Positions 15,966 through 43,664 of a stretch of 64,000 nucleotides of DNA are shown here, piece after piece. The translations under genes were made by a program, and so were the position numbers. The notes beneath the pieces are model-generated. The model was not told where the DNA came from. It worked only from the letters and a program-made list of their open reading frames with translations, and did no database searches. Numbering within the stretch: position 1 is the stretch's first letter; each line of letters begins with the position of its first letter. Source of the DNA: Bryopsis sp. KO-2023 (Eukaryota; Chlorophyta; Ulvophyceae; Bryopsidales; Bryopsidaceae); contig BSYQ01000008.1 in assembly GCA_030272585.1 (NCBI GenBank), positions 1,364,001 through 1,428,000 on the forward strand. The letters run 5' to 3'.

Positions 15966-16089
15966 CCGCAGTACAAGTACCGGTCCATGGCAGCGCTCGA
16001 TCGTCCCATCGGTAGCGCTGCCTGCCTCGCCGCGGATTTAGTCCCAATTCGCCGCGTACCATTTCGGCGCAATCCAAAACTCACTACTC

Positions 16090-19000
16090 CCCAACACGCG
16101 TTACGACTCGTCCCCAGCGCTGGACGAGCGCACACTTGGCAATTCCAGTTTGCTGTTGCTCAGTGGTTTGTGCAGCAGGGCTCTGGCTCTGTGGGTTCTC
16201 CGTTGGTGTTCTTGTAAGGCTTGAACTACGAATTTCTGTGAACCAATGAGCAGATGCTCAATCATGGGCATGCTCCAAGAGGCTTTCAGCTTGGACAGAT
16301 CTTTGAGGGGGGTGATAAACGACTATTAAAAAGAAAAGATAATCAAGAAAGTTTGGACATTCGGACAGGGAGTTGTGTCTGGTCATAATTCATTGGAGCA
16401 TTTATTTCATGGTCAAGCCAGATTGGGCTTCCATGGTTAGCCAGCGCTCGATTTTTTAGGACATGCGAAATTCAAACTGCCCTGCAGACTGCTTTTGTAA
16501 GCAGAACTGTACAAATCAAATGAGTTTTGAAAAGAGTGGAGATATTTTTGATCGAAGGCTTTGCCTAAATAACAAACAATTCGTTGACATTCGAAGACTC
16601 AGAGCAAAAAGGGTTCAATCAAAATTAAAGAGAATGAGGAGAAATTTCCTTGAAAGAGTCCATCAACTTCACACTTCATACCCAACAAAAAATTTTGTCT
16701 GAAAAAAACCAATCAAAGTTGGAGCGAAGCTCACTTCCTGGATCCATTCTGCAGGCGGCTGGCCAACATCGCCATGTCCCTGGCAACTTGCTGCAATTCG
16801 CTGCTGCTGGATCTTTTTCTCCCTGATTGCCTGTTCTCTTCGTGAATTCTTCGAGGAATCTTTCCGTTGCGACTTGCGGCATATCGAGACCTACCACTCC
16901 TGGATGGTTGCCCAGAAGAGCCACTATTGGCATGCCTGATTTTGTTCATCAGGTGCTCTTGATGGACTCTCCACCTCTCCTCGACCTCGTGGACCGATCG
17001 GTCGACCACAGCCGGCGAAAAGATGCTTGGCAAGCTGTTGAGGTCGCTCTCAAACGATTCTGTGTACTGTCCGTGGTGATCGGCAGGTTGGAAGTGCTGC
17101 TCCCAGGCCGTGTGTCGTGGATATCGACTTTGCTCAGCTCCTCTCGGTGGATACACATTCATACCTCGTTGGTTCGAAGCGAAGCGCTCCATTGTCGCAC
17201 CAGAAAAGCCATTGTGATATCGGCGATCAAATTCTTCGACAAAATGAGTGCTGTCATGGAAATCCCTGGACCTGGAGTCTCTTGGAGACATGTTCCTTCT
17301 TGATTTGCCATTGTGTCCATTCTGTTGACGTTTGAGTTGGCTTCGTTCTCTTTCTCTGATGTAGTGTGCTTCGTTGTGGAATCCTTCATGGGAATCTACT
17401 CGATTGTAGTACCCGTCCCTTTGGTAACTGTCTTGAAATCCTGGAGCTTCGGTTCTCACATACCGACTGCTCTGGTTATAGTCATCCTGCGCTCTCCTTG
17501 GACGAAACCCGTGGCTCATAATGGGTCGCCTCGGTGTCTCAGTGCTTTGGTCTGTATCTGTGGTGGGTTCAGACTCAGACATTTTCTGACATGCCTCCTG
17601 AACAGTCTCCCCCATTGTTTTGCACAACGACCGAAGTACATCCCATGACGCCTCTCCATTCTCAACTCGCTCGCCACCTCCGTCTGAATCAGGATTAGGC
17701 GGCCACGCGTGTGCAACTCCACTGGAGGACTCCTTCAAAATGCTAGGTTGTCTATCTTCTTCTTGGTGAAAATTTTGAATTGATGTCTGCAAGGGTTGCT
17801 TGACATCCCTTGCTACCTCTGCACCCCTGTTTTCAGCCTTCGTTTCGACTTTCGCATCCCTTAAAAGGGTTTCTTTCTCAGCGAAATGTAGATGCAGGTG
17901 AAACTGATCAGGCACAACCTTTGTGGTTGTGCTCTTGATTCCCCCCAGAGCAAATCGGTCAAGAAGCTCTTTTGGGATGATTTCAGATAGCCACTCCGCC
18001 CCTGGCTGTTGATCCTTGAGGTCAAACTCGGTGCCATCCAGCAGTTTTTCCTTGGGGGGAGCTTGTGGAATGGGTTCTTTGCTTGACGTTTGTGTGGACG
18101 TGTCAAGTCTAACCTTCTCCTGTTTTTTCGCGGTTTCTGTCTTTCTAAAAATCAAGGATTCTCCAGTCTGAATCCCGACTGTGCATGCGTTGGTAATCTC
18201 TGTTTCTTCTCGAGGCTTATCGGTGCTTGTCTGGGAACCCGTCAAGGACTCTTTGATTTCAGCCTGAATTTCTGCCGTCCTGGCCTTCACTACCTCCTTT
18301 TCGTTCTCAAGGTCCCTCGAGTCCCTCAACACCGACAAGGCTCTGACGCTGGGGTGAGTCGTGGTATCGCTGTCTTTTTGAATCGCCTCAGTCGCTTGGG
18401 GCTTTTCTCCATCCGAAAAAGCCTTGTTTTCCTGATCAGAAACGGGGAGAGATGATTCCTCATGTGATATCCTCCCGTGGGGTTTGATTTCCCCTGAGCT
18501 ATCAATCGACATGGACTTCAAGCACTCTCTCTTGTTGCTGGCCTTCTTACATCCCTCACTGGAGCTCGATTCCAGCACGTTGCGATTGCCCCCAGCCGTT
18601 ACCGAATTCACATTTTCTTGTGACTCGCCAAGATGCCCTCCAAGCTTTGGCTGGGTGCTTCTCGATGCAGAAAATGTAGATGGAACTGGTATAGCTGTGA
18701 ACTTTTTCCTTTGGCCCCCGTCACTCGCCCAACAGTTCTCACGATTGAACTGGGTTCTTAGGTCGTTGTCATTGCTGGTTTGGGATTTGTAGACCTCTTT
18801 CGCCCCACAACTGTTCCCCATGCTTCCGTCCAAATTGGGGTTCGAGGGCACCTCCTTCCCTTCGTTCTGGTCGTCGGATGGGCCATCGTCGAAACTCGAA
18901 TAATACCCCTGTCAGAACAAAGGTTGATGGCTCAGCGTGTCCAAAACATGGTAGTCGAATTAAGACTTGGATCGGTATCTGTTTGTTTAGTGTTCGTCGC

Positions 19001-20732
19001 TGTTTGTGCTGGTCGAAATACAGAAGCTATCTTTCAGCCCTGCTCATTGTCTGCTTTCTAGTTCCGTCCTGTGGGGACACCGTACCTTCTCATCGAACTC
19101 GTCGGTCTTGAAATCCTCATCGCCACTTTCGAGCCACTGCATAGACGACTCGTCTCCCCTCGACTCGTCGCTTCCAAACTCATCGTAGTGGGCGTAGCGA
19201 TAGATGTGCCGGACGACCTGGAGATCCAAACGTGGCGCGAGTTTCTTTCATGTGGACGGAGCAGAATCCAAATGATAACAAGGCGACTTTTCCAAAACGA
19301 CATACCTGGGGTTCAGCTGGACGAAGCGGCTCCGTGAGATCGCTAACCTGACGTTGTGGCCACTCCTCTTGCCCGTCCTCCGACACATCGCCTGTGTGGG
19401 TGGTTGCCAAGGACGCAGCAAGGGCAACCTGCAGATGCAAATGAAATTTGTGACGTCGCTCGAAAACACCAAAGGAAAAGCACCAGAATCGCTACACACC
19501 TCGACATTGCGTGGGAGGGAGCAATGGTCAGACCCATCAGATGCCTCGTATTCATCCATCGACTCGGGTTTGTCCCCGCACTGAACTGAGCCAGTCCTCG
19601 CCGAACCAGAATCGCACTCTCGTGATGCACCATCCAATTCGACCCCCTTTGCGATATGGACATGGCGCTTCGAGGATACAGACCCCTCTCCGCAGCTCTT
19701 TTGAACCTGTGGCTGTGTGTGATGCGGAGGCTGGGCGCTGAAGTCGGACACACCCAACAGATTCCTGCACTTCGACAAGAAGTTCGACTCTCGAAGCTCT
19801 TCAAGCTGCTTTTTGACGACTTTGGTTTGCTCCAGCAACGCGCCGTTCGAGGTGGTGGGTCCCTTTGGGCTTCTGGAGGATTCCCCGCTGGAATGCCCTT
19901 GGGGTAACTGACGTCTCTCGCTGGGTTCATTCGCTCGAGGACTTGTGGGTTTGCCGTTTGCACCCTGCAGGAGCGCTCTGGCTCTTGCTGCACTGGAACT
20001 GGTGTTCCACGCTGCGCCCAAGTTCGGATACGGTTGGTAGTCGACGGACGAGTCCTGCGAAGGCCGATCCCACAGAGCACAGTAGAAACGACTATACCCT
20101 GCTGGTCTGGTGCGCTCTTGTTCGCGCCCAAAAAAGCTGCCAAGATCTGACCCAGTACCCAGCCACTCAGAGACCTTGATGGACGCGTCTGACGTTGTAT
20201 TGCTCCCTGCTGTTGCAGCAAAAGCAAGAGAACAGTGAACGTCAGGACAAAGTGTGGTCCAGTCGACCAGACCAGACGTCGAAACCTTTTGACGGTAATC
20301 ACAACAGTTGAGCTTGGCCGTCAAAAGTTCCACACCTCCACCGTAGCGCTCCGTGCTTTCGCGAACCCTCTGCATGACCGCGTGGGGTCCTTGCAGCCCA
20401 AGCAGATCGCTGATGGTTTGTCTGCTCATTCGGATAGGCTATCCTGGAGGTGAAAGGTTCAGGTGCTGACGGCCTGGTGGGTCAATGCTTAAAGCCAAGC
20501 GCGGGAAGAATTGGCGGGGGCGAATGATGGAACTTGATTCTGTCATTGCAAACATTTGGTTTGAGCGGTTGTGGTTGCTTGCAAGGAAATTGTGTTGCAA
20601 ATGGAACAATGATATCCACGGAATCTGTAAAACCAGCAGTTGGGAGGGTAGCCATTTGAGGTCCGTGCAGCAATTGACGATTTCTTTGAAAAAGCTAACG
20701 CAACAAGGCGAAAATGGAGACACTTATTTTCG
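16090..20732 (-). repeat. Arm A of a large inverted duplication (pairs with 37971-43437)
   Basis: The reverse complement matches arm B from the sequence just upstream of the gene start (20732 pairs with 37971) through all four exons and introns to a point about 0.6 kb past the stop codon (16090 pairs with 43437). The protein-coding parts differ by roughly 5-20 percent by eye, so the duplication is not brand new. Arm A lacks a segment of about 0.84 kb that arm B has at 42440-43280. Confidence 0.85.
16731..20429 (-). CDS. Unknown four-exon protein, copy A, 1120 aa
   Basis: Exons 20429-19500, 19428-19306, 19217-19086 and 18908-16731, all joined by phase-0 GT-AG introns, total 1121 codons with stop. 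I do not recognise the family. The N-terminus (MSRQTISDLLGLQGPHAVMQ) is the most ordered-looking part. A short segment TKVVKKQLEELRE could be a coiled coil. The middle is acidic and Ser/Lys/Glu-rich. The C-terminal 300 residues are Arg/Ser/Tyr/His-rich (RERERSQLKRQQNGH, SRSGRSRY), suggesting an RNA- or cytoskeleton-associated disordered protein. A Val-Glu-rich helix (DRSVHEVEERWRVHQEHL) lies near the end. No signal peptide or membrane segment is seen. Both copies keep the whole frame and the same splice sites, which argues that both are functional. Confidence 0.75.
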
Positions 20733-21697
20733 CTCAAGTCCAAAAATGGGAACCAAAAAAAACAAAGTGCTCAGGCAAAAATGGAAACGGTGAACATCAC
20801 AGATTTGAAAATTTTGATGGTGGGAGAATCAGTATAGATGAAACGAGCTTCAGATTCAAGAAATTCAACCAGGCCTTTCACTAGCACAATTTTTGTCACT
20901 CCCATCAGTGATGGGCCATCAGCACTTCCACAATCACCGAAAGCCACTGCTGATCTTTGTTTCTCTGCAAATGACTCCAGGCAACCTCATGACCCCCTCC
21001 TCCTGGTCGAGTTCTCATCTTTCCAATTTGATTGGATTGCAACCCTGCAACAAGTAAAAAACAGACCCCCCCTGCCCTTTCGGAAAAACAAACATGCTCA
21101 CATAGGAAACATGCAACGTGAAATCTGAATTTGCAGAAATGAGTGAGTAAGTTGTTGAAGATATCTGCTGTGAGTTGTGGTTTTTCCATCATTTTTTTCT
21201 TTTTACGAAAGCCGCTCCCCTAAGGTCCGCTTTTTTGGTGCTGGGATGTGATGCATTTCATGGTAGCAATGGAGTTCTTTTCGTGTATGGAAAAGAAACC
21301 AAAACCAAAAAACACAGCACAGGGATGTTGAAATTTCCCCACTCTACAGAACTAGAGAATGCCGACAATGCTCAAAAACCAAGATCAACAAATTATCAAC
21401 TTTGTATAATCACCTTCAGCAGACTGGGTTCAGGCGACCTGGTTTTTTTGCAACTAGAGATGAACACTTTTCCAGAAATATAATCTTAAACAATAGACCC
21501 CCCTTGCATCCACCCAACCCTTTGACACCACACCCCTCAGCTTTATTATGACATCGAAATCCCTCAGATTTATTGACAAACAAAACACCCACCGAATCGC
21601 CTTTTTAACAACGAAAAACACATTAAAAAAGAGAACTGGTTGAGAAACCCCCTTCGGCCAGTCTTGGGCTGGCATTATTACGTGTGACCGTAATTTG
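20733..21697. other. Intergenic, containing a diverged outer-repeat copy
   Basis: 20865-21125 is a partial, same-strand relative of 46850-47075 (listed separately). The rest is AT-rich with no gene. 21490-21697 is the likely 3' region of the small minus-strand gene. Confidence 0.5.
20865..21125 (+). repeat. Outer repeat, copy 3 (partial, diverged)
   Basis: Matches 46850-47075 in order: CCAGGCC(T)TTCACT, CACAATTTTT, CACTCCCATCA, then AAAAACAAACATGC and GGA(A/T)ACATGCAAC. Shorter and less conserved than the other two copies. Confidence 0.5.
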
Positions 21698-21925
21698 TCA
21701 CACTTTCCGCTTGAGGCGGTCAGACTTTGATAAGATTCTCCGACACCCGGCTCCGGAGCAGCTGCTGCTTTCTGAGTAGCCAGTTCCGAAACTGGTGTCA
21801 AAATCTTCATCATAATCATATCCTAAGAAGTCCTGTTTGGGGCTTCGGAACAGCAATGCTCCGGAGCCAGCTTGAAATGTCAAAAAGATCACTCCAAACA
21901 GAAGCAACAAGCGATGGGCTGCCAT
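21698..21925 (-). CDS. Small secreted peptide, 75 aa
   Basis: The chosen start (Met at 21925) gives a typical signal peptide: MAAHRLLLLFGVIFLTFQAG followed by SGA, a likely cleavage site. The mature part of about 50 residues is acidic in the middle (YDYDEDFD), then Ser/Gly-rich with two cysteines (SSSCSGAGC), and ends in a basic cluster (RLKRKV). The frame continues upstream to 22030, but those residues would spoil the signal peptide. A TATATATGG stretch lies about 110 bases upstream on the coding strand. I know no family for it. It could be a hormone-like or cell-wall peptide, or a chance frame. Confidence 0.45.
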   Translation of the reverse strand: MAAHRLLLLFGVIFLTFQAGSGALLFRSPKQDFLGYDYDEDFDTSFGTGYSESSSCSGAGCRRILSKSDRLKRKV

Positions 21926-22176
21926 TTTGATATAGTGGAAGCGTACTGAAACACCACAGAAGTTCCAGAGAAATCTGGTCAGGCACTTCATGATTCTTGG
22001 TGAAACGATCTGGACTGACCACAACCTCACAAAAAAAGATATATATGGTTGCCATATTTTGCTTCTCAGTTATTCCACAAAATCATCGTTCTTGTTTTGA
22101 TGTCAGACGCAACACGAGCATCTACTTTCGAACTGGAGCAATGGAAAAAGTGTTCCGCCGTTTCGGGGGTGGCGAA

Positions 22177-22194
22177 CACCTCTAGCTAGAGGTG
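22177..22194. repeat. Perfect 18-bp palindrome
   Basis: CACCTCTAG followed by its exact reverse complement, in otherwise gene-free sequence. Could be a protein-binding site or chance. Confidence 0.4.
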
Positions 22195-22407
22195 AATCGA
22201 AACGTTAACGTGAATCCTCGCAAGCTCCCAAATAAGGCTGCGAGACGAAATATATAGATGCGCCGCCAGCTGGCAGAGAGCGTATTGCACAAAGCCAATT
22301 ACCTGTGTCGTTGAAAAGCACCCCCAAATCTATCCACGCCCGTGAACAGCAGACAGAAATCGAAGTGGAGCTTTTTGAAGCCGTTGCACCTGACAATCAA
22401 GGGCAGG

Positions 22408-22722
22408 TCACATCGCTGGGAATATTGGCTCCATTGATTGATTGCGAAGTTGAGGCTGAAGATTTTTTTTGGGGGAGGGGGGGGGGAAGGGGGGAGAATT
22501 GCAGAATATATACCACATATATGTATACCATTGCAAGCAGAAGTGAGGGATGGACTCTTTTTTCAAGTTACTGTCTGTGTCTTGGCAAGCATTGTTGGAG
22601 GCTTGTCCAACACCGGATTGTGTGCTGCAAGCTCCAGTTCTAAATAATTGGTTGATGAAACATACCAACAGCAACAGCATCAGCAGAAGACCCTGTTTAA
22701 ATGAGATGGACTCCACTGCCAT
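22408..22722 (-). CDS. Possible first exon of a small secreted protein
   Basis: The frame starting at 22722 begins with a convincing signal peptide (MAVESISFKQGLLLMLLLLV), then a Cys/Ser/Thr-rich stretch (GACSTQSGVGQASNNACQDT). After that it runs into low-complexity, intron-like sequence. A donor-like GTAACT occurs just after that stretch. I could not find a downstream exon with matching phase, so only the N-terminal part is supported and the true end is unknown. It may be non-coding. Confidence 0.3.
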   Translation of the reverse strand: MAVESISFKQGLLLMLLLLVCFINQLFRTGACSTQSGVGQASNNACQDTDSNLKKESIPHFCLQWYTYMWYIFCNSPPFPPPSPKKNLQPQLRNQSMEPIFPAM

Positions 22723-22950
22723 TCATGCTAAGCGCTCAGCGTCACTACCAGCTCCCTCTTTTTTGGGGGGTGGGGTGTCAGAATCGTTTCTGTATAAATC
22801 GAGCTAGAATATGCTTTTTGAAACAATGCCCCAACACTCATCCATGCAAAAAGAAATAGACACGCCCGATTGGGGAACCTGGCTTTGAAAAAACACCAAA
22901 AAATAACCGGTCGACTCTTTCACGCTGCGTTGTTTTCCCTTTGGTTTGCT

Positions 22951-24969
22951 TCATGAGGTTTTCGGTTCGAATCCCAGCCTCTTGCTGATTTCAGCTTTCG
23001 CCATTTGGAAGGTCATGTCAAGGAAACTGGACCCATCTGTGACCAGTCTTTGGAGGTCGAACAAGTTCTGGCAACACCACATAATGTCGTGAAAAAAAGA
23101 AGCAAAAAGTTTAGCGGTAGTCACAAAACATGCATATATCTACATGAACACTTGAAATATCTGAATCAGCCCATAACACATTTCTCAGCAAAATCTTCAT
23201 CTTGCATGAAAATTTTGATATCAAAGTACAGTCTTTTTCAGAAAAAAATAATGAAACTGCATAAATACATATTTGTGTGTGTGCATGAAGGTTATTCTTC
23301 ACCATATGTAGTTTTTGTTTCTGGGGTGCCTGGCCCTTTCACAAGGGATTTCTATTCAGTTTACTATAAAGCGAAGATAAATTTAATATCTTAGGTGCAA
23401 CAGTGGAGAGTTTCTAGAACTGACTACATTGAGCTGGAATTTTTCCCAAGGGCTTGGGCTAAATCACCTCATTGTGGAGTGCCTTCGCTGGGCAAGTTTG
23501 CCTTAATTTTAAAATTTTATTCGTTCAATTAAAAATGACAACATGTGCACACCTTCACTCGAGCATCGATCATTTCCCAGGTGTCCCCGTATCCAGGCGA
23601 AAAGTCAGTCAACATGTGAATTTCGGCGGCTGCGTATATGCCACACAAGGCGGTGCGTTTCAAATACCAAGTCATGTCCATGGATCGATCTCCATTGATG
23701 TGCCACACTTCGTCGATGTATTCATGCAAAAGCTGGCCAGCCTTCGGAGTCCGGGAGGGGTTGGCTAATATTTTCATGGCTTGAGGCGTTCTTTCTGTTT
23801 ATGAGAAAACAAAACGAAAGCGATTTTTCTTTGTGGTGGAAGAAATTCAAAATTGTTATGATTCCATAGATAATGTCTGAAATGTTTGGGTTCATCTCTG
23901 CATTCACCACAGATGTTTTTTGGGGAGGGGGCAAAAAATATACCCTGTGCATATTCACACAAATATGAGAAAAAAAACATGAAAAACAACAACACGATGT
24001 AGGAGCATGCCAAAACAACATAACAAATAAGCACCTTTTTCTTTTTCAACTCGGCTTCGTTTTTTTTCCTCCCTTCTGTCTTTTGGTGAGAAGTTGGTTT
24101 TCTTACCGATGAATGGCACGTTCAATTCCAGTCTGACTCTGAGGGACCTCGACAACCGCTCCGCGAGGTTCAATTTTTTCATTTCAGTCGATTGCACCTC
24201 CAAAATTCGCAAAGCTTTGGCATTTGATTTCGAAATGAATCTCTGTGCTGACCGATCGCACCACACATCCAAAGCCAACCATCCATCACCGTTCTTTCAA
24301 CCAAAAAACCCTCCATGTCTTGCTCAGATAGAAATATCACCTTGCCAACTCATGAAAAGGTTGCCTCTCTGTACGTACATGCGGACATTAAAGAAAAGAA
24401 GAGGTGATACCCACCAGAATGAGGCTGGCTGGACCTTCCGAAACAATGCTGCTGGCAGCTCTCGATAAACCCATGTCTTTCGCTGCCAAATGGAGAGCCT
24501 CATGGGACCACCCCACAGATTTCTGGATTGAAGCCCAATGACTAATCAGTTTTTTAATGCATCAAATCAGCTGTGCATGTTTCAATGCATGGAGTGCAAC
24601 AGCAGAAAACTCAGCTTTTTTAAAATTTTACTTAGTTATCGTTATTTTTATTTTTTTTTGCCCGCTAGGTTTTTGCCAACGGCAGAGCACCCGGAGCCAT
24701 ACCACGTGCTCCAGGCCTCGTTCAATCAACGCCTCTTCCAGACTCGTCGAAGCCCCAGGAGATTCCTGCTTGGGTGCTCCGCTGGCGTTGGGTGCGAGGG
24801 CCTCTGAAGTAATACTCGAAGCTCTGCTCTGCGCTGGAACGCCGCCCGAGGGGATCCCCGACGCAGCACCATTCTCGGGGTGTCCACAGAGCACCAGGGA
24901 GGCGATCGCTTGCTTTCCGCATGCACTGCTGGATACCCTCGTCGCTAAACGGCGGGCGAGGCTCTGCAT
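22951..24969 (-). CDS. COQ9: COQ9, ubiquinone biosynthesis protein, mitochondrial, 306 aa
   Basis: Five exons: 24969-24703, 24522-24415, 24293-24107, 23794-23553 and 23067-22951. Phases are 0, 0, 1, 0 and the total is 307 codons with stop. The Arg/Ser-rich N-terminus (MQSLARRLATRVSSSACGKQ) is a likely mitochondrial presequence. Family features follow in order: LEEALIERGLEHVKSVGWSH, NLAERLSRSLRVRLELNVPF, the lipid-pocket helices DEVWHINGDRSMDMTWYLKR, then AAAEIHMLTDFSP. COQ9 binds isoprene lipids and helps COQ7 reach its substrate in the CoQ synthome at the inner membrane. Length and domain order are normal. It is divergent from EAF6 with 337 bp between the start codons. Confidence 0.92.
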
Positions 24970-25306
24970 GACGATTTTGGAGGCGAGATGCAGAAAAAGC
25001 CGTCAGACGAAGTGAACGTTTGGGAAGTTTGAAGATTCGTGGTGATTTACTCTATGTCTTCCCAGGGTTCATTATTGTCCGTCAAGGAGCGAAATTACTG
25101 AAAGACGGTGTCGTTGACAGCAACCCCGTCTCCCGAAAACCCGAAAAAGAAAAATAGAAAACCTTCTCCCAGCGTCCGGACACGCAGCGTATCGCGTAGA
25201 GATCGTCTCGCCTTGATTTTTAGGAAACTCGGGAGGTTGTCGCTTGCACGCCTGAGCGCTTTCGCGACGGTCGCTGTCTGAATCCGAATTCACTTGGACG
25301 GAGGAG
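24970..25306. promoter_or_regulatory. Shared upstream region of COQ9 and EAF6
   Basis: 337 bp separate two divergent start codons, so it must hold both promoters and 5' leaders. No TATA box stands out. Confidence 0.5.
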
Positions 25307-25795
25307 GTGGTGGGGGTGATGGGCAGGAAAGGAAAACGTACAACGAAGAGAGGCAGCGGAGGCTCGAACACCACTCGGGGGTCGGGCAGGCGGTTGGGTC
25401 GACCCCCCAACAGGCATTCCACCCCAGCGACGCAACCGTCGAAACAGTCTCCCCCCGGTTCGAACCCCGACTCCACCCCGCAAAGCGCGCAGCAGAATTC
25501 CCAGCTGAGGACGGATGCGAAGCTGTCGCCGGAGGATAAGGTCGTGCAATTGCTCGAACAAGAGCGGGAAGCGGCCCAGCAGCTGGAGATCCTGGAACAG
25601 CGTATATACGCATACGAAGAGTCGTATTTGAGTTCGAGCGTGAGGGGGAATGCCGTGAGGGGTTACGCGAACTGGTTGGGCACCGGACAACCGACGCCTG
25701 TGGGTTTGAGGGAAGAAGATAGAATTTTCTCAGGGTCGTCAATAACTGGGAATAGGCATGTTCATGGGGGGGTGTCGGGGATTGCGGAGGCCTAG
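25307..25795 (+). CDS. EAF6: EAF6-like subunit of NuA4/MYST histone acetyltransferase complexes, 162 aa
   Basis: Single exon. Residues about 1-85 are basic and low complexity (Arg, Gly, Pro, Ser, Gln). Residues about 87-145 carry the EAF6/MEAF6 signature: a coiled-coil LLEQEREAAQQLEILEQRIY, then AYEESYLSSS, GNAVRGYANWL, and the closing REEDRIFSGSSITGN. EAF6 is a small structural subunit that stabilises nuclear acetyltransferase modules on chromatin. The start could be the Met at 25307 or the one at 25319; both keep the domain. The family usually has 110-200 residues, so length fits. Confidence 0.88.
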   Translation: MVGVMGRKGKRTTKRGSGGSNTTRGSGRRLGRPPNRHSTPATQPSKQSPPGSNPDSTPQSAQQNSQLRTDAKLSPEDKVVQLLEQEREAAQQLEILEQRIYAYEESYLSSSVRGNAVRGYANWLGTGQPTPVGLREEDRIFSGSSITGNRHVHGGVSGIAEA

Positions 25796-26375
25796 GCAGC
25801 CCGTTTTTCGATTTCGTTGGGTGGTAAGGAGGGACACTTTTGGGGTTCGTTTCGAGCGATGGCGCGATATTTATATGACTGTTCGATCGCAGTGATAATC
25901 TAAGGGGAAAAAAATTCAAAGAAACTCAAGCACAAATGGGGGGAGGCTTGCATCTCATTCGTGGGTTAATCTGGGCTGGCCGTTTTTTGTTTTTTTTGGG
26001 GGGGTGTTAAAGCACACCATTAGAGCAACAGTTGTTTTTTTCTTCTCCAGTTGTTTTTTTTACACCAAAAATTGTGTTAGTTTTTGCAAAGAAGTTTTGG
26101 GAGGAGGGGGATGGGGAAAAAAAAAAGAAACGAGAGGGTCGGTGAATCAGCTTCGACTCGATTCTGTATTTTGACAATTTATTTTTTCAAATCATGAGTT
26201 GACCATTTGTCGAATTTCATTCCAAGGAGTGAATCAGGACGAGATTTCGGTGCTTTCTTTTCTCTTATTTTTGAAGGGGGGTTTGGGGGGTGGATTTTTT
26301 TCCCCCGTTTTTCGAGGTCGATCCAGAATCGGCGCTGGTGTTCGCGAGTGTTTCGTTTTCTCGGAGGTTTTTGGG
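25796..26375. other. Intergenic between EAF6 and the CTD-phosphatase gene
   Basis: AT-rich, with long T, G and A runs (25980-26130). The last 200 bases should contain the promoter of the next gene. No coding region seen. Confidence 0.5.
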
Positions 26376-32312: not shown

Positions 32313-33844
32313 CAAATTGCATAAGAGGGAAAAATGACCTCCTCTTCAAACCACATCTCCAGAAGGGGTGGTCCCAGCTGGTCCAAGAACCATCGTTTTT
32401 TGCATGTGTGTGTGTTTTGCTTCTTTTGGGGAAAAGGGGGGTAGGGTAAGCTAGCACCTTAGATCCATGAGTGATGTTCCATGTTCGAAATGTGTTCAGC
32501 GAGGGACCACGTCCAGTAATTAAAAAAAGTTTGACAGATTCTGTGGGAGGGGGGGATTTTATGGTTTTGTATTGTTTGTGGTTATGGTGGTTTGGGTTGC
32601 CTTTTCAGGCACAAAAAAAAGGGGGTTCGCGGCACGGACAATTCCTGCTTAGTTTCAGAGATGTTTTCAGGTGTAATGACTATGGTAGAATTTGATCTCC
32701 TTGGAAGGGGTGAACATGCATCCACGGATTGAATGGAATTGAAATCGAGATCTTTTAAAACTCATCTCCATCTGCCTTGCTTGGTTTCTTGAACCGCCGC
32801 CGCCATTACCACGACCCCAGTATCGTTTTCAAACTCGCACTTTCAACATCCAGGAAATCGCCCTGTCCCATCTCAGCAAAGACGTCTTTCTTTCAAGTAC
32901 AAGAAAGACGTCACATTTCCGGCGGCATCGTCGCACCGCGTTTGCACGTCGGAGTGCCACAAACGCTTTCAGCGCACGTGACTACACCCCTGTTTTGTGT
33001 GTTTTGATCATTACTCAACCCCCTTTCTCCCCGTTTAGGGCGCTGCTACCATTCCGACCCCAAATATGGCTGGCTTCGCGGTGGGGTTCTCGTCGAATTT
33101 CAAACACGCCGGCTCAATTTCTGGAGCGCGTGTACTTCAGGCAGAAATTGAAAAGCGATTTTCACACTTAGTGGTCAACGTAACAGGAGTATTCGTAACA
33201 GAACATGAAATAAAGGACAGCTGTGGTGTCAGACGCGTATGGATCGCAGCGGCGAGTGTGTGTGGGACGGCGAGTAGTTGGCAAGGTCGAGAAGAGGAAC
33301 CCCTTAGCGAGAAAACTGGTGGTCGTATCCAAAAGCGAGTTGAACTGCGCGTTGCAGTGCAGAGAGGTGGAAAGGAGGGTGCTCCAAGCACAGCTGTGGA
33401 AGAAAGGAGGCATACGCCAAGAACCTGTTGAGATCCTGTTGGGGTCGTGGTAAGTGAAACAAAGGCCACAAGGATCCCACTTCGTCGGATCCCCGAGCTG
33501 CGGTATGCCTCGCGTTCTGGATCATATCTCGAGGCTCTACCGTGTTGGATTGTCGCTTCGGGGAATCCCAGTACAGGACCCTTAGAAAGCCGATCCGGTC
33601 TGTGGAGGCGCTTCTCGTTGGCGCGTTTAGTAGTGTTCTTCTTAGTGGAGTACTGCCTATGTTTTGCTGTTGTGTGGCGCCGCTTGCGTCCATTCCACCC
33701 CTTCGAAACCTGACCGCGTTTTCCTATCTTTCAAAGAAGGATGTTCTTCGTTGCTTTTTCGCACCCCCCCTCAGCTGTGACGGTTTTTTTCACAGGTGTG
33801 CGTTTCTTTGGTTCAAGAAGAGGAGGTCCGTTTACTGCATATCG
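32313..33844. other. Intergenic, ~1.5 kb, with a strong hairpin and a G+C-richer block
   Basis: 32881-32912 is a perfect 12-bp inverted repeat with 8-base loop. 33060-33720 is less AT-rich than its surroundings and has long frames on both strands, none with recognisable domains. It may be promoter/5' leader of the next gene, or an unrecognised element. Confidence 0.45.
32881..32912. repeat. Perfect hairpin, 12-bp stem
   Basis: GACGTCTTTCTT, an 8-base loop, then AAGAAAGACGTC. Each arm carries GACGTC, a CRE-like palindrome. Confidence 0.55.
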
Positions 33845-36574
33845 ATGGGTAAATCCAGCGATCGCAGGAAGAGCGCCGCGATGTTCTCGCGCGAATTCTA
33901 CCCCAGCGCCGGCTTGAAGGACGGAGACGCCATCAGTCTGTGGCAGGAGGTGAGCCGTGACAACCAAAAAAACCTGGCATGCGTAATATTACTTACCAAA
34001 ACTAAACCAGCACCACGTAAAAGCACCGATTCGAATCCTCGCTGCGTTTCGAGTTCCATGTCTTCTTTTTACACGCTGTGTGGCGTTGGATTTTTTGGGG
34101 GGTGATACGTTTTTCGCAGTCAAAGTACTGGGCTGATCGAAACGCAATGACGACCACGACAAGAACACCACACATCCGTTTCGATCGTTTAGTCAGTCGA
34201 TCAACCCTGCCGATTTTCCACACAAACGCTGGGATGGTGCCACCCCAGCAGCAACCGTTTCATTTCAGCTCCTAGATTTCTTCCTGCTTCTCCTCCTGGC
34301 CACTCGGTTTACCTTTTTCTTCTTTTTTTTTTTTTAATGCATGCATGGCCGCAGGATATGGATGGTCCTTTGGGCGTCAGGCAAAGGGAAGATGAGATGG
34401 GTCAAATTATCTACAGCGTGGTCAAGCTGCCGATTGCTGCGGAGCCGGCGGTTGTGGAGGAGTGCCTTTTCCATGTCATGCAGAAATTTGTGAGTCCAAG
34501 GACATGCTGTTGTATCATTCAGCAGCAGCCAATGGATATATATTATGGATATATATTATGGATATATATTATGGAGCAGCATTTCCCCTGCTGCAGAGTT
34601 TTTTTTCTTGCAGAACATATTTTGAAAATTATGTCCTTTCCTTCATTCTTAAAAAAAGAAAAAGGGGCAAATTGAAATGACCATAATTAGGAAAGGATAC
34701 GCTGATCCCTCAGTCAGATGCTACCTGGCAGATGTTAATTGAAATCGATTTTCTGGATGACAGACTTCCATGCATATTTCGGGATTTTACCTCCACAACT
34801 GTATGAATATTGCTGTTCTTGGTTGCAGGAAGAGGGTGAATTTGCGTTGAGGTCGGAAGCATGCGGTGGGTGTTTCTTGGGGGTGCAGAACGGGAAATTG
34901 AGGCTGGTGAGAAAATACTACCCCTGGCGGATAGAGGAGATTCCAGAAGAGCCTTGGGAGCAGGCGATGATGATCATGGTGGCGGCTTGTGGAAAGGTAT
35001 GATTGTTGCTATGTAAAGACAAATTTCAGTGTCAAATTTGTTGTGGGGTCCCTCTTTTTCAGTTTTCTGACGAGGACTCCTGTTTAGGAAATCTTCTTCG
35101 TGTTGTCTGGTTTTTTGCCAACAAAAAAGTCCAGCTGTTTTTCTATTTTTTTTTTGGAGGGGGGGAAGCATAACTTATGCAATTTGTTGGGACCCAGAAA
35201 GGGGTCTTGCTGGAGGTGGCAAATTCACTGGGGGTGATCAATGTGGCCAAATTATTCGCTCCACCCCCACAGATGGCTTCAGATTGAGAAAGGAAATTGA
35301 TGGTTTCTGTTTTTTGATTTTTTTTTTGAGAAAATGGACTAGATGTGATTGTTTAGTATTGTTTTGGGTTTTTTCCTGATGGTCACCAGAGAGGACTGGA
35401 GCTGACGCTGAGAAGAGAAGGATTTTACACCGGAGGGAGGCTCAGCACCACGATGTCTGACACAAGCCGGAGTCAGAGCATCCGGAAGGTAACCCTGACT
35501 ACTTCCATCCTTTCTATCAGAAAAAAAAAAACCAGAAAGGAAAAGCATCATGCCAACTTCAACACTTTTTTTTTTTTGTCAAAACACTGTCGTCTGAGTT
35601 TCTTGATGTGAATCAATCCAGATCGATGAGGGGGTGAACGCTCTCCTCGAAAGCCACGGCAGCAACATGGCCGAGGCATTCACGAAGGACCCAAATGCCG
35701 ACGATTTCAACAGCTCGAAGGGGGATCCTGCTGGTGAAGGCACCGGAGATGACCCCCATAGACACCACCAGTCGATGAGTCTCAGCCCTTTTGCTTCCGG
35801 CTTCAGAAAAGGCTCATCGCTGGATTCTGGGGCACCCGGAGCAGGCGATCGGAGGAGCCGGGGATGGATGCCATCGTACGATGCATTCGTTGATCATGTC
35901 CCCAACGGCAAGAGGCGTAACAGTCGAAAATTCAAGTCGAGCAGTCAAGGGGAGGTTCGCAGAGAAGATGATAATGGGGAAATTTCTTCAGCGAGGGAGT
36001 CCAGATCTCAGCAGGTATGGTGTGGGGTTTTCAACAGGGGTGAATCTGACCAGGTTTCTTTTGTTTTCTGGGCGATAGCTCCATTTGCCCGCCAACAATG
36101 CTTTTCTCTTGAAATGTCTGTCATTGAAGCTGGTCACTTTATTGTTTTCTTGAATTTTGCTCCAAAAATTTCCTGGAGGAACTGAAGTAGGTCAGATTTT
36201 TCCGGGGAAAAGATGGGATTGGATTGGTGTTCAATTTTTTTATTCTAGCTTAGAGAACGAAAGGAGTGGGTTGGAGCAGAAGGGAAGGTGGTGGTGCGTG
36301 GAAATCATAAATTCATGTGTGTGTGTGTTGATGTGAAAAGGCTGGAGGAGTCGATGGCGAAAGTCGTCATCAGCTGGAAGGAATGGGGCTGGCGGCAGAA
36401 AATAAGATGCTGGAGGCGGAAAACAGGCTTTTGAGGGATAAGATAGGAAGCATCGAGGAGGAGGTGTGTCGATTGAAGGTGGCGATGGAGGGGCAAAAAG
36501 GAGGGGTCAAGCGCCTAGTTTTCGGATTTATGATCGGGCTTTCTGCAACCATTACAATGCTCAAGATGCGATGA
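33845..36574 (+). CDS. Unknown tail-anchored protein with C-terminal coiled coil, ~390 aa
   Basis: Seven exons: 33845-33949, 34355-34489, 34829-34996, 35390-35488, 35622-36014, 36249-36287 and 36341-36574. All six introns are phase 0 and the total is 391 codons with stop. I recognise no family. The N-terminal ~165 residues look folded (EFYPSAGLKDGDAISLWQE; GCFLGVQNGKLRLVRKYYPW). A long disordered Ser/Gly/Asp/Arg segment follows (~200-310). The end has a leucine-zipper-like coiled coil (ENKMLEAENRLLRDKIGSIE) and then one hydrophobic segment with basic flanks (KRLVFGFMIGLSATITMLKM), typical of tail anchors to ER, mitochondria or peroxisomes. The 39-bp exon 6 is the least certain. Confidence 0.7.
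34531..34575 (+). repeat. Short tandem repeat in an intron
   Basis: About three copies of a 13-base unit (GGATATATATTAT) inside intron 2 of the tail-anchored-protein gene. Confidence 0.6.
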
Positions 36575-37970
36575 ACAAAAAAAAACAAAAAACAAAGGGG
36601 GGGGGGGGAGGGGAAAAAAAGAAAAAACAGAACTGTTTTTTTAACTTGGTTTTCTTTTATGCGTGCTTTCTTTTTGGGTTTTTTTTTTCTCTTTTTTGCT
36701 TGGTTTTTTTGTCTGGAGGATTGTTTTAGGGTATAACTTTCGTTGATCGATTTTGGTTTGGTTTGAAAACACACGTTGTGTGTAATTGAGAGAAATATTT
36801 CTTCATGGGAAAAAAAAAAGAAAAAAAAATTCAAGGAAAAAAAAATGGTGGTTTGTATAGTTAGTTATGCATGCAGGTGCGTGCCTATTTAAAAATCCAC
36901 AGGGAGCCACGTTCAGAAAATTAGGTGGAGAATTCCCTTGGAATATAAGGAAAAAAAAACTTACAGGAATTAATTAGTCACCTTTTAGAAGAATTTGAAA
37001 TCTAGGATGCAGGTTCTGCTTTTTTTGAAAAACAATTCATTGATTAGTTTTTTTTCTCAAATGTGCTTAGCTCTTGAGCAACAATTGAAAAGCTTAAGAA
37101 AAATGGGAGTAAATCCCAATCTAGATTGCAATCATCATTGTGGAACGTTTTTTGTGTTTTTAATTTTGTTAGTTTCGTGCAAATGTTTTTTGTTCTCAAC
37201 TTAGTTTAAAAAAAAAAAAAGAATCCCCCCAAAATTGAGTATTATTAAGAAGGAAAGATAGAAAAAAAGAATCTTGCACACTAAGAGAGCAAGAAAACTT
37301 GAAAAAAAAGAAAAAGAAAAAAAGAAAAAACAACACATGAAAGAGAAAAAGAGAAAAAGAAAAAGAGAGCAACAAAACTTCATAACCTAGCGACTTTTTG
37401 GATTTATTGTAAACGAAAAAAAAAATTAAAAAAACAGGACATAGTATTACACGAGGGAAAAGAGAAAAAAAAAGCTGTAGGAAGCAAGTTTGGTTTAAAA
37501 AAAGAACACGAGGGGTTGCTTGTAAACAAGGATGTAGTGGGTTTTTGAGGTTAAAATAGGTAATGGAGATGGAAAGCCCATCCCAACTCATGATTCAAAT
37601 ATTGAATGCAAGATTCCCTACAGCATAGTGTAGGTTTCTGTTAGGTCCGCTGGACACACACATAGATTTTCATTGTCATGGAGATGACTGTTTTCTTACT
37701 TGAAACAAAAAAGGTGGGAGGGGATTCTTGGGTGTAGAAAAATATTGTTGCATCAGGGAGGAATATTGTAAAGATGGTGCTGGTGTGTAAAAAGTTGCAG
37801 AAAGAAAAAAGATTGGAAGAAAAGGTGGTTTGTTAGAAAAAGAACCAAAAAAAGAGTTCCAATGAAAACTCCTGTTTTATTCACAAATCAAAGACGGAAT
37901 GGCCAGCTGGAGGATTTTCGATTTGTTGTATTCATTGCTGATAGGAGTTGTGCAGAAAAAAAAACAATCG
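36575..37970. other. Intergenic, strongly low-complexity
   Basis: A-rich and T-rich runs with GAAAAAG-type microsatellite (about 37200-37440). No coding region. It separates the tail-anchored-protein gene from arm B. Confidence 0.55.
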
Positions 37971-38261
37971 TCTCCATTTTCGCCTTGTTGTCTTAGTCTT
38001 TCAAAGAAATCGTCAATTGCTGCACGGACCTCAAATGGCTACCCCCCAAAACTGCCAATTCTGCAGATTGCGTGGATATCATTGTTCAATTTGCCACACA
38101 ATTTCCTTGCAAGCAACCACAACCGCTCAAACCAAATGTTTGCAATGATAGAATCAAGTTCCATCATTCGCCCCCGCCAATTCTTCCCGCGCTTGGCTTT
38201 AAGCATTGACCCACCAGGCCATCAGCACCTGAACCTTTCACCTACAGGATAGCCTATCCGA

Positions 38262-41200
38262 ATGAGCAGACAAACCATCAGCGATCTGCTTGGGCTGCAA
38301 GGACCTCACGCGGTCATGCAGAGGGTTCGCGAAAGCACGGAGCGCTACGGTGGAGGTGTGGAACTTTTGACGGCCAAGCTCAACTGTTGTGATTACCGTC
38401 AAAAGGTTTCGACGTCTGGTCTGGTCGACTGGACCACACTTTGTCTTTCCGTTCACTGTTCTCTTGCTTTTGCTGCAACAGCAGGGAGCAATACTACGTC
38501 AGACTCCTCCATGAAGGTCTCCGAGTGGCTGGCTAGAGGGTCAGATCTTGGGAGCTTCTTTGGGCGCGACCGAAGGGAGTACCCAAACCACACCAGATCA
38601 CCAGGGTACAGTCGTCACTACTGCGCTATGTGGGATCGCCAAGGCCCTTCGTCCGTCGACTACCAACCGTATGCGAACTTGGGCGCAGCGTGGAACACCA
38701 GTTCCAATGCGGCAAGAGCCAGAGCGCTCCTGCAGGGTGCAAAAGGCAGGCCCCAAAGTCCTCGAGCAGGAAGGGATGAACCCAGCGAGGGACGTCAGTC
38801 ACTCCAAGGCGATTCCAGCGGGGGATCCTCCGAAACCACCAGAAGCCCAAAGATACCAGCCCCCTCGAACGGCGCGTTGCTGGAGCAAACCAAAGTCGTC
38901 AAGAAGCAGCTTGAAGAGCTTCGAGAGTCTCATTTCTTGTCGAAGTGCAGGAATCTGTTGGGCGTGTCGGACTTCAGCGCCCAGCCTCCGCATCACACAC
39001 AGCCACAGGTTCAAGAGAGCTGCGGAGAGGGGGCTGCATCCTCGAAGCGCCCTGTCCATATCGCAAAGGGGGTCGAATTGGATGGTGCATCACGAGAGTG
39101 CGATTCTGGTTCGGCGAGGACTGGCTCAGTTCAGTGCGGGGACAAACTCGAGTCGATGGATGAATTCGAGGCATCTGATGGGTCTGACCATTGCTCCCTC
39201 CCACGCAATGTCGAGGTGTGTAGCGATTCTGGTGCTTTTCCTTTGGTGTTTTCCAGCGACGTCAAAAGTTTCATTTGTATCTGCAGGTTGCCCTTGCTGC
39301 GTCCTTGGATTCCACCCGCACTAGCAATGTGTCGGAGGACGGGCAAGAGGAGTGGCCACAACGTCAGGCTAGCGATCTCACGGAGCCGCTTCGTCCACCT
39401 GAACCCCAGGTATGTCGTTTGGAAAAGTCGCCTTGTTATCATTTGGATTCTGCTCCGTCCACATGAAAGAAACTCGCGCCACGTTTGGATTTCCAGGTCG
39501 TCCGGCACATCTATCGCTACGCCCACTACGATGAGTTTGGAAGCGACGAGTCGAGGGGAGACGAGTCGTCTATGCATTGGCTCGAAAGTGGCGATGAGGA
39601 TTACAAAACCGACGAGTTCGATGAGAAGGTACGGCGATTCCCAACGGAACCAGAAAGCAGACAATGAACAGGGCTGAAAGATGGCTTCTGTATTTCGACC
39701 AGCACAAACAGCAACGAACATAAAACAAACAAATACCTATCCGAGGCTGAATTCGACTACCATGTCTTGGACACGCTGAGCCATCGATCTTTGTTCTGAC
39801 AGGGGCATTATTCGAGTTTCGACGATGGTCCATCCGACGACCAGAACGAAGGGAGAACGCCTCATGTGGACGGACGCATGGGGAACAGTTGTGAGGCGAA
39901 AGAGCTCTACAAATCCAAAACCAGCACTGACAACGACCTACGAGCCCAGTTCAACCGTGAGAACTGTTGGGCGAGTGACGGGGGCCACAGGAAAAAGTTC
40001 ACAGCTATACCAGTTCCATCTACATTTTCTGCATCGAGAAGCGCCCAGACAAAGCTAAGAGGGGATCTTGGCGAATCACAAGACAATGTGAATTCGGTAA
40101 CCGCTGGGGGCAATCGCAACGTGCTGGAATCGAGCTCCAGTGAGGGATGTAAGAAGGCCAGCGACAAGAGAGAGTGCTTGAAGTCCATGTCGATTGACAC
40201 CAAAGAGAAAATTGGATCCGAGAGAAAATCACATGAGGAAGCATCTCTCCCCGTTTCTGATCAGGAAAACAAGGCTTTTTCGGATGGAGAAAAGCCCCAA
40301 GCGACTGAGGCGATTCAAAAAGACAGCGATACCACGACTCACCCCAGCGTCAGAGCTTTTTCGGTGTTGAGGGACTCAAGAAACCTCGAGAACGAAAAGG
40401 AGGTGGTGAAGGCCAGAACGGCAGAGATTCAGGCTGAAATTAGAGAGTCCTTGAGGGATTCCAAAACAAGCACCGATAAGCTTCGAAAAGAAACAGAGAT
40501 TACCAACGCATGCACAGTCGGGATTCAGACTGAAAGAGAATCTTTGATTTTTAGAAAGACGGAAACCGCGAACAAACAGGAGAAGGTTAGGCTTGACACG
40601 TCCACACAAACGTCAAGCAAAGAACCCATTCCACCATCCCCCAAGGAAAAACGACTGGATGGCACTGAGTTTGACCTCAAGGATCAACAGTCAGGGGCGG
40701 AGTGGTTATCGGAAATCATCCCAAAAGAGATTCTTGACCGATTTGCTCTGGAGGGAATCAAGAGCACAACCACAAATGTTGTGCCAGATCAATTTCACCT
40801 GCATCTACATTTCGCTGAGAAAGAAACCCTTAGGGATGCGAAAGTCGAAACTAAAAACAGGGGTGCAGAGGTAGAAAGGGATGCCAAGCAACCCTTGCAG
40901 ACATCAATTCAAAATTTTCACCAAGAAGAAGATAGACAACCTAGCATTTTGAAGGAGTCCTCCAGTGGAGTTCCACCAGCGTGGCCGCCTAATCCTGATT
41001 CAGACGGAGGTGGCGAGCAAGTTGAGAATGGAGAGGCGTCATGGGATGTACTTCGGTCGTTGTGCAAAACAATGGGGGATACTGTTCAGGAGGCATGTCA
41101 GAAAATGTCTGAGTCTGAACCCACCACAGATACAGACCAGAGCACTGAGACACCGAGGCGACCCATTATGGGCCACGACTTTCGTCCAAGGAGAGCACAG

Positions 41201-41950
41201 GAGGATCGTAACCAGAGCAGTCGGTATATGAGGACCGAAGCTCCAGGACTTCAAGACAGTTACCAAAGGGACGGGTACTACAATCGAGTAGATTCCCATG
41301 AAGGATTCCACAACGAAGCACACTACATCAGAGAAAGAGAACGAAGCCAACTCAAACGTCAACAGAATGGACACAATGGCAAATCAAGAAGGAACATGTC
41401 TCCAAGAGACTCCAGGTCCAGGGATTTCCATGACAGCACTCATTTTGTCGAAGAATTCGATCGCCGATATCACAATGGCTTTTCCGGTCAGGCAATGGAG
41501 CGCTTCGCTTCGAACCAACGAGGTATGAATGTGTATCCACCGAGAGGAGCTGAACGATATCCACGATACACGCCCCAGGAGCATTACTTCCAACCCGCCG
41601 ATCACCACGGACAGTACCCAGAATCGTTTGAGAGTGACCTCAACAGCTTACCAAGTATCTTTTCGCCGGCCGTAGTCGACCGATCGGTCCACGAGGTCGA
41701 GGAGAGGTGGAGAGTCCATCAAGAGCACCTGATGAACAAAATCAGGCAGGCCAATAGTGGCTCTTCTGGGCAACCATCCAGGAGTGGTAGGTCTCGATAT
41801 GCCGCAAGTCGCAACGGAAAGATTCCTCGAAGAATTCACGAAGAGAAAAGTCAATCAGGGAGAGAAAGATCCAGCAGCAGCGAATTGCAGCGAGTTGCCA
41901 GGGACATGGCGATGCTGGCCAGCCGACTGCAGAATGGATCCAGGAAGTGA
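38262..41950 (+). CDS. Unknown four-exon protein, copy B, 1118 aa
   Basis: Exons 38262-39215, 39287-39409, 39497-39628 and 39803-41950, all phase 0, 1119 codons with stop. It has the same architecture and splice positions as copy A (start 20429, minus strand). Exon 1 is 24 bp longer and exon 4 is 30 bp shorter; exons 2 and 3 have exactly the same length (123 and 132 bp). Most differences are substitutions and in-frame length changes in the disordered middle. The last 250 residues (e.g. VDRSVHEVEERWRVHQEHLM) are nearly identical. The ordered N-terminus MSRQTISDLLGLQ and the small acidic exon 3 (RHIYRYAHYDEFGSDESRGD) are also kept. I infer purifying selection on both copies; the function is unknown. 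Confidence 0.78.
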
Positions 41951-42439
41951 GCTTGGCTTGGCTACAACTTTGAATGGGTTTTTCAGACAAATTTATTGTT
42001 GGGTATGACGTGTGAAGTTGATGAACTTTTCTAGAGGAATTTTTTCTAACTCTCTTTAATTTTGATTGAACCCCTTTGCTCTGAGTCTTCGAATGTCAAC
42101 AAATTGTTTGTTATTTAGGAAAAGTCCTAGATCAAGAATATCTCCACTCTTTTTAAAATCCATTTGATTTGTACATTTCTGTTTACAAAAGTAGTCTGCA
42201 TGGCAATTTCAATTTCGTATGTCCTAAGAAATCGAGCGCTGGCTAACCATGGAAGCCCAACCTGGCTTGACCATGAAATAGATGCTCCAATGATTCATGA
42301 ATTTTGAGCAGACACAACTCCCTGTCCGAATGTCCAAACTTTTTTGATTATCTTTTCTTTTTAAAAGTCTTCTATCCCCCCCCCTCAAAGATCTATTCCA
42401 GCTGAAAGCCTCTTGGAGCATGCTCATGATTGAGCATCT

Positions 42440-43280
42440 TCCCATTGCTTTCGGCAGCAATGATTTTAAACCTATATGATTGAAGCTATAATTTTCAACG
42501 GGGAAAAAAGAAGCGAAAACCCACAAAAAAACTGGACTGTATTTTTGTCACAGGCGTAGCTAGGATGATGCACTTTGGGTGGCCAGAAAAGTTTTTTAAT
42601 ACACCTATCTTTCCCCCCAGGCCCCCCTGATTACTCCCATGATTTATGCAATACCATTAGGAGTCCCGCTTTGAGCAGGAGCAGCTGCAGAAGTGATTCT
42701 GCAGTTTTTCTGAATGGAGCTGCACGTGGTCTTCATAATTGAGCATGAATAATCATGAATATTCCTGTGGCCAGAACATACAGCAGAGCCACACATTATC
42801 CCAATCTTTGCAATATTGAAAATATATTTAAGATACGTTAATGTGAGATCTGTGACTGTGACTGCACCCACTCCCACAGTCACCACAGAGCACAGCACCA
42901 GAGGGGAAAAAAAAAGATCGAGAAAACCATAGGTGCTCCAGCAGACACACCAACAGTATAACCAACCAGTAGCTTTGCCATCTAGAACCAAAAACATAAA
43001 ATTCATGACAGATGACTTTATTCAATTTCAGGGCCAACATAGACAGAGAGAATCTGGCATGATGTTGATTGTGGTGCTCTGGGTACAAGGAAGAGTTGTT
43101 TTTGTTTGGTGAAACAAATTGCTTGGATTCATTTGAGAACGTCATGGAGCATGATCACGTTTCGAATCTCTTGAGCGTAGTGGATTTTGCTGCAACCTTG
43201 AATAAAGAATCGATCACAGTTTCTGAATAAAATACAGGGATGGAATCTACAGTGATGGGCATTGCCTCTGATGATAACTG
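42440..43280. other. Segment present in arm B but absent from arm A
   Basis: Arm A passes directly from the sequence matching 42439 to that matching 43281, so ~0.84 kb was inserted in B or lost from A. Near its left part lies CACAGGCGTAGCTAGGATG, followed by a G/C-run-containing stretch, a combination known at the ends of some DNA transposons. I could not find the partner terminus. Confidence 0.55.
42644..43006 (-). CDS. Possible small hydrophobic, Cys-rich protein, 120 aa
   Basis: A minus-strand frame inside the arm-B-only segment encodes a hydrophobic stretch (GWLYCWCVCWSTYGFLDLFF; LVLCSVVTVGVGAVTV) and a Cys/Ser-rich tail. There is no known family and no copy in arm A. It could equally be a chance frame in transposon-like DNA. 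Confidence 0.22.
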   Translation of the reverse strand: MNFMFLVLDGKATGWLYCWCVCWSTYGFLDLFFSPLVLCSVVTVGVGAVTVTDLTLTYLKYIFNIAKIGIMCGSAVCSGHRNIHDYSCSIMKTTCSSIQKNCRITSAAAPAQSGTPNGIA

Positions 43281-43583
43281 GGTTCACCGAAATTCGTAGT
43301 TCAAGACTTACAAGAACACCAACGGAGATACCCACAGAGCCAGACCCCTCCTGCACAAAGCACTGAGCAACAGCAAAACTGAACTTGCCAAGTGGGCGCT
43401 CGTCCAGTGCTGCGGACGAGTCGTCACGCGTGTTGGAGAGTACACTTTTGTGTGAAAGCTCTTTGTCATAGCCCCCACTCTTTCTTATTAATATCCGTGA
43501 AACGAGTTCGCGCCTTTTCCTTGCAGGCGCTCGACTGTTCGTCTCGCTTTGCTGCCTTCTGCTACTCTTGTTCTGCACTCCAG

Positions 43584-43663: not shown

Positions 43664-43664
43664 G

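What the first reader, a model, noticed from the sequence alone, without database searches (positions are those of the whole stretch)
16090..43437. Inverted segmental duplication with two intact copies of an unknown four-exon gene
Arms of about 4.6 and 5.5 kb in opposite orientation flank 17 kb of housekeeping genes. Both copies keep all splice sites, phases and a full frame (1120 and 1118 aa), although their sequences have diverged by several percent. Intact frames after that much divergence suggest both are used. Such a structure also predisposes the 17-kb spacer to inversion.
Basis: seen in the sequence. Interest (0 to 1): 0.7.

Follow-up and report, generated by a model that had tools for sequence, protein, structure and literature searches.

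The report
Repeatedly duplicated unknown algal gene family
Two mirror-image copies of an unknown gene, probably from an alga, turn out to be two of six intact close copies on one chromosome that appear to swap sequence and to be kept working by selection; what the gene does is unknown, and the way it multiplied is ordinary.

Summary
The inverted duplication is real: 16241-20730 and 37961-42450 match at 91.8% in opposite orientation.

(1) The gene has five exons, not four. A 126-base phase-1 intron was read as coding. In the relatives C, D and E its indels or stop codons break that frame, while in A, B and F it happens to stay open. Without it the proteins are 1078 and 1076 aa.

(2) A and B are not a special pair. 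They belong to six close copies within 390 kb of one contig, in both orientations, plus five more distant members on three other contigs. B's nearest relative is copy F, 263 kb away, not A.

(3) A, B and F are mosaics of each other, as expected from gene conversion.

All six close copies have full frames, and A-B dN/dS is 0.47 (0.36-0.63). Exon 5, two thirds of the protein, has no Pfam, NCBIfam or PDB relative above cut-off. Most likely this is a scaffold-type gene family amplified by ordinary local segmental duplication. Expression, inversion of the spacer and relatives in other eukaryotes could not be tested.

The parts
20336..20429 (-). Copy A exon 1 (start codon begins at 20429)
   Evidence: Five-exon model from the six-copy alignment
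20210..20335 (-).
   Evidence: 4 distinct indels among six copies, 0 of 4 multiples of three; an in-frame TAG of copies D and E lies inside it
19500..20209 (-). Copy A exon 2
19306..19428 (-). Copy A exon 3
19086..19217 (-). Copy A exon 4
16731..18908 (-). Copy A exon 5 with stop codon; whole protein 1078 aa
38262..38355 (+). Copy B exon 1
38356..38481 (+).
38482..39215 (+). Copy B exon 2
39287..39409 (+). Copy B exon 3
39497..39628 (+). Copy B exon 4
39803..41950 (+). Copy B exon 5 with stop codon; whole protein 1076 aa
16241..20730 (-). Main arm of the duplication, copy A
37961..42450 (+). Main arm of the duplication, copy B
16085..16244 (-). Outer homologous block 1, A side; adjoins the main arm (4-base overlap) because about 0.8 kb present in B is absent here
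43281..43442 (+). Outer homologous block 1, B side
14860..15344 (-). Outer homologous block 2, A side
46584..47111 (+). Outer homologous block 2, B side
43644..45221 (+). Protein kinase gene (domain spread over three ORFs) duplicated together with the unknown gene in copies B, C and F; not found beside A or E
   Evidence: PF00069 in three consecutive ORFs; copies
15345..15912 (.). Dispersed repeat, apparently an LTR plus adjoining internal sequence, lying in A where B has the kinase gene
   Evidence: 40 other places match part of 15345-16084 (40 of 86 candidates scored); bases 1-275 recur alone 5.4-5.7 kb from a 1-568 match in at least four cases

Best explanation
The window holds two members of a gene family that encodes a protein of about 1,070 aa, rich in disorder-promoting residues and without recognised relatives. 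The family multiplied on this contig by local segmental duplication in both orientations; in the ancestry of A, B, C and F the duplicated block was about 9 kb and also carried a protein kinase gene. The six close copies all keep full frames under moderate purifying selection, and A, B and F have exchanged tracts, most simply by ectopic gene conversion. A later lost the kinase, and an LTR-type repeat now lies there. Shown: copy number, full frames under a five-exon model, dN/dS, mosaic tracts, the kinase with B, C and F. Inferred: the five-exon model itself (no transcripts), conversion as the cause of the mosaic, loss of the kinase in A. Guessed, at about one chance in four: the protein is a scaffold or linker that acts through short conserved islands and helices, and several copies are kept for dosage. 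The confidence given is for the architecture and history, not for the function.
For: Six close and five more distant members. The five-exon model gives full frames in 6 of 6 close copies (start codons of E and F seen). Distinct exon indels are multiples of three in 24 of 26, intron indels in 4 of 18 (Fisher p = 2.4e-6, treating them as independent). dN/dS is 0.41-0.56 in 15 of 15 pairs, highest upper bootstrap limit 0.77. 46 informative sites of A, B and F fall in 12 runs; shuffles average 29.2 and 0 of 100,000 are as low. Kinase copies lie with B, F and C. 63.8% of residues of A are of a disorder-promoting set that I chose.
Against: No transcript or protein data. The intron 1 stretch also reads open in copy F and in the C10 member, so openness alone does not decide. 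dN/dS of the sister pairs (B-F 0.53, limit 0.71; D-E 0.56, limit 0.77) does not exclude partial relaxation of one copy. One of the 11 members has an in-frame TGA in exon 5. The kinase is not beside A, D or E. Disorder rests on composition and on a model from two rows, mean pLDDT 36.9, which can be low for lack of depth alone. Assembly chimeras could in principle mimic mosaic tracts.
Confidence: 0.8

Rival explanations
1. A single inverted duplication of a four-exon gene, A and B being each other's closest relatives.
For: The two arms are real and inverted; the four-exon frame is open in A, B and F, and the C10 member is open through the same stretch.
Against: Six close copies. B-F is closer (dS 0.088, 94.0% DNA) than A-B (dS 0.110, 91.8%), and B and F share the kinase side. 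The four-exon frame is broken in C, D and E inside intron 1.
Confidence: 0.04
2. The gene is cargo of a mobile element that inserts in both orientations.
For: Copies lie in both orientations at six places on the contig; A, B and C share nearly the same 5' limit of homology, about 300-310 bases upstream of the start.
Against: No terminal repeat or target-site duplication was apparent by eye in the upstream alignment, and the limits differ in D, E and F. No dedicated end-repeat search was run and the downstream listing was cut. The close copies are confined to 390 kb of one contig, unlike the LTR-type repeat, which lies on many contigs. B, C and F carry the neighbouring kinase and flank too.
Confidence: 0.08
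3. The gene and the kinase form a functional two-gene module (for example kinase and substrate, or a selfish pair) that spreads as a unit.
For: Kinase and gene are duplicated together in B, C and F.
Against: No kinase match lies near any of the five members on C4, C6 and C10. None lies beside A or E, which keep full frames. In D the nearest kinase is about 16-18 kb away in the other relative orientation.
Confidence: 0.06

Closest known systems
Gene families amplified by local segmental duplication with concerted evolution (general class, recalled)
   Same: Several intact copies clustered on one contig, both orientations, mosaic tracts, moderate purifying selection.
   Different: Exon 5 of the protein matches no Pfam or NCBIfam family above its cut-off, and that of copy A no solved structure.
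Palindromic gene pairs homogenised by arm-to-arm conversion, as on sex chromosomes (recalled)
   Same: Inverted arms carrying intact gene copies that show exchange of sequence.
   Different: The arms differ by about 8%, and one arm's closest relative lies elsewhere on the contig.

Membership tests
Segmental duplication | Long, similar blocks of ordinary genomic DNA, flanks included, at more than one place | tested here: met
   4.5 kb at 91.8% plus two outer blocks; B and F also share the kinase side, 93.7% over 1701 columns
Segmental duplication | Not an assembly duplicate of one locus | tested here: met
   Arms differ by about 8% and carry different inserts; of the 17.2 kb spacer the 4 kb tested (21000-25000) occur once, apart from a short dispersed repeat. 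No reads were available
High-identity palindrome (sex-chromosome type) | Arms nearly identical through mutual conversion | tested here: not met
   91.8% overall; B is closer to F than to A
Transposable element cargo | Terminal repeats and target-site duplications at fixed ends | tested here: inconclusive
   None apparent by eye in the upstream alignment; upstream limits differ in D, E and F; the downstream listing was cut and no dedicated search was run
Two-gene kinase module | Both genes linked in all members | tested here: not met
   No kinase match near the C4, C6 and C10 members, nor beside A and E
LC8-binding scaffold (motif recalled) | More [TVI]Q[TV] motifs than chance | tested here: inconclusive
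   2-3 per protein against means of 0.53-0.78 in shuffles; each count is reached by 10-89 of 500 shuffles. An IQT site recurs in 10 of 10 proteins looked at

The most novel reading that the evidence does not exclude
A protein family not recognised in Pfam, NCBIfam or the PDB, probably disordered, whose gene repeatedly duplicates as inverted neighbours (A/B on C8 with a 17 kb spacer; a second inverted pair on C4 about 24.6 kb apart, 92.5% over 3.6 kb) and is kept in about ten copies by selection on dosage, with conversion between copies keeping them alike.
Probability: 0.3. Interest if true: 0.45.

Novelty: new member of a known kind. Interest (0 to 1): 0.27.

Why it matters
It is a clean case, probably in a green-type alga, of an intact multi-copy family of unknown function in which dosage selection and gene conversion between inverted copies could be studied. 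It also shows how an intron without stop codons can be read as coding when only two copies are compared. The duplication process itself is well known.

Tried and rejected
Viral origin: one scan of viral contigs with the exon 5 protein; 5 stretches matched a pattern, none encodes a relative. Known domains: no Pfam match for exon 5 of A or B at E up to 1; a 116-aa stretch of B read across exon 1, intron 1 and part of exon 2 gave one weak hit below its cut-off (Crp, E 0.17). NCBIfam gave nothing for exon 5 of A and one hit far below its cut-off for B. Exon 5 of A has no PDB sequence match at E up to 1. The spliced whole protein was not run against any library. Structure: exon 5 of A with B as the only second row gave mean pLDDT 36.9 and pTM 0.19, with 8 of 726 residues at 70 or more, so no fold search was run. 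LC8-motif idea: inconclusive.

Species: the 18S family search gave no answer twice and one exact 18S pattern found nothing. Chlorophyll-binding matches are numerous, and the best one looks of green type to me from recall. Of the papers I saw search listings, and of PMC12509668 four passages, which say nothing on the alga's nuclear genome. I made no search for earlier descriptions of this gene family in print, and no collection of other eukaryote genomes was available, so how widely the family occurs is unknown.

Full report
Observation. Self-comparison of the window finds the inverted pair 16241-20730 / 42450-37961 at 91.8% over 4538 columns, and two outer inverted blocks, 16085-16244 / 43442-43281 (91.4%) and 14860-15344 / 47111-46584 (83.2%). 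The window is C8:1364001-1428000 of a 91 Mb, 28-contig genome.

Gene structure. In all three the damage lies in one stretch. That stretch begins GTGTGG, ends CTGCAACAG, has phase 1 at both ends and is 119-129 bases long. Removing it gives full frames in 6 of 6: A 1078, B 1076, C 1084, D 1054 aa, and E 1068 and F 1069 aa read from loci cut just inside the start; their start codons are in the adjoining stretches. Within this intron 0 of 4 distinct indels are multiples of three. Over all introns it is 4 of 18, over all exons 24 of 26 (Fisher p = 2.4e-6). These indels were collected from pairwise rows, so they are not fully independent events. The two exceptions lie in exon 2, whose total lengths differ by multiples of three in all six copies (coordinates), so they are probably alignment splits. 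Among the distant members, C6 has a stop shortly after the same point, which fits an intron; C10 reads open through it, which does not decide; the 5' ends on C4 are too diverged for me to judge. No transcript was available.

Family. A search of the own genome with exon 5 of A gives 14 matches, a lower bound by the tool's own note: six on C8 (82-100% identity), one on C6, three on C4 (one with an in-frame TGA), two that are parts of one 771-aa open frame on C10, and two short weak ones (C12 with a TGA, and C8 at 316 kb) that I do not count as members. The C8 members start at 1283.8 (-, C), 1380.7 (-, A), 1403.8 (+, B), 1471.2 (-, D), 1618.8 (+, E) and 1666.7 kb (+, F). On C4 two members lie inverted about 24.6 kb apart, 92.5% alike over 3.6 kb and 82.3% over a further 0.6 kb. 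For the five distant members only exon 5 was read, and 4 of 5 are open there.

Selection. Nei-Gojobori dN/dS over 15 of 15 pairs of the six close copies is 0.41-0.56. A-B is 0.471 with bootstrap 0.36-0.63 from 200 resamples; the highest upper limit is 0.77 (D-E) (E and F without their first 3 and 15 codons). If A and B had each drifted freely for half of their 196 differences, about 4.1 stops per copy would be expected and none is seen (Poisson chance about 0.017 per copy, transitions weighted 2 to 1). These figures support constraint but allow partial relaxation of single copies.

Relationships and exchange. Over the coding region B is closest to F (dS 0.088), not A (0.110). B and F also share the kinase side, 93.7% over 1701 columns. 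Sites at which two of A, B and F share a base that differs from C, D and E (these three agreeing, no gaps) number 24 BF, 12 AB and 10 AF. They fall in 12 runs; 100,000 shuffles average 29.2 and never fall below 14. Restricted to 38 sites inside the gene region it is 12 runs against 25.8, minimum 13. This is what tract-wise exchange between copies leaves behind. Gene conversion is the inferred cause. Crossing-over between the inverted arms, which would invert the spacer, is possible but untested.

The duplicated block. In B the gene is followed by a kinase gene (PF00069 in three consecutive ORFs). The DNA 43237-47111 recurs after F (90%) and, reversed, at 1226.4-1229.8 kb (90%). The latter fits copy C, now about 53 kb away; the sequence between holds inverted repeats of 98.9 and 99.6% and ORFs with Ty3-type reverse transcriptase, integrase, chromodomain and gag matches. 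More distant kinase matches include those at 1453 and 1503 kb of C8 and others on C1, C4, C5 and C9. A keeps the outer blocks but has 740 bases where B has 3.1 kb with the kinase. Of these 740 bases 568 belong to a dispersed repeat of LTR type. A also lacks about 0.8 kb downstream of the gene that B has. Since C has part of that stretch too, a deletion in A is the simpler reading. No kinase match lies near the C4, C6 and C10 members or beside E, so the association looks like that of a passenger.

Protein. In A 63.8% of residues belong to a disorder-promoting set that I chose. Exon 5 of both copies has no Pfam match at E up to 1, that of A no PDB sequence match, and that of B one NCBIfam hit far below its cut-off. 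The best conserved 20-column islands across ten members, the broken C4 one left out, include DLNSLPSIFSPAVVDRSVHE, ENGEASWDVLRSLCKTMGET and EWLSEIIPKELLDRFALGGI (A's letters); 147 of 807 columns are invariant. An AlphaFold model of exon 5 from two rows shows only separate helices (mean pLDDT 36.9). This depth cannot prove disorder.

Verdict. The pair is part of a larger, ordinary process: local segmental amplification with exchange between copies, of a gene family whose function is unknown. My functional guess, a scaffold or linker protein kept for dosage, has perhaps one chance in four.

Noticed in passing
G000:C8:1230000-1283300 (L024-L029): About 53 kb between copy C and its kinase holds long inverted repeats of 98.9 and 99.6% identity (arms about 4.8 and 4.5 kb) with Ty3-type retroelement ORFs of up to 1375 aa; recent activity is likely.
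   Followed up: partly
window 1-98 and 1804-1901: Identical direct repeats; in the longer region a 151-base pair (C8:1363948-1364098 and 1365751-1365901) with a third copy at 1230012-1230160 (94%). Looks like the ends of a short LTR-type element about 2 kb long.
   Followed up: no
window 5921-10018: Long open frame with TIG, malectin and glucose/sorbosone dehydrogenase matches and an internal repeat at about 9348-9930.
   Followed up: partly
window 13431-14555: Open frame with a Dickkopf_N (cysteine-rich) match and a direct repeat offset by 144 bases at 13670-14084.
   Followed up: partly
window 23312-23538: Short dispersed repeat with 40 other places scored out of 219 candidates, on many contigs; SINE-like in its spread.
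   Followed up: no
G000:C4:218353-220500 (+) and C4:245068-247203 (-): A second inverted pair of the same gene family, 92.5% over 3.6 kb, about 24.6 kb apart.
   Followed up: partly
G000 whole genome: 107 matches of the chlorophyll-binding domain PF00504, many as separate exons, with some equal-scoring pairs and one equal-scoring triple on the same contig.
   Followed up: no
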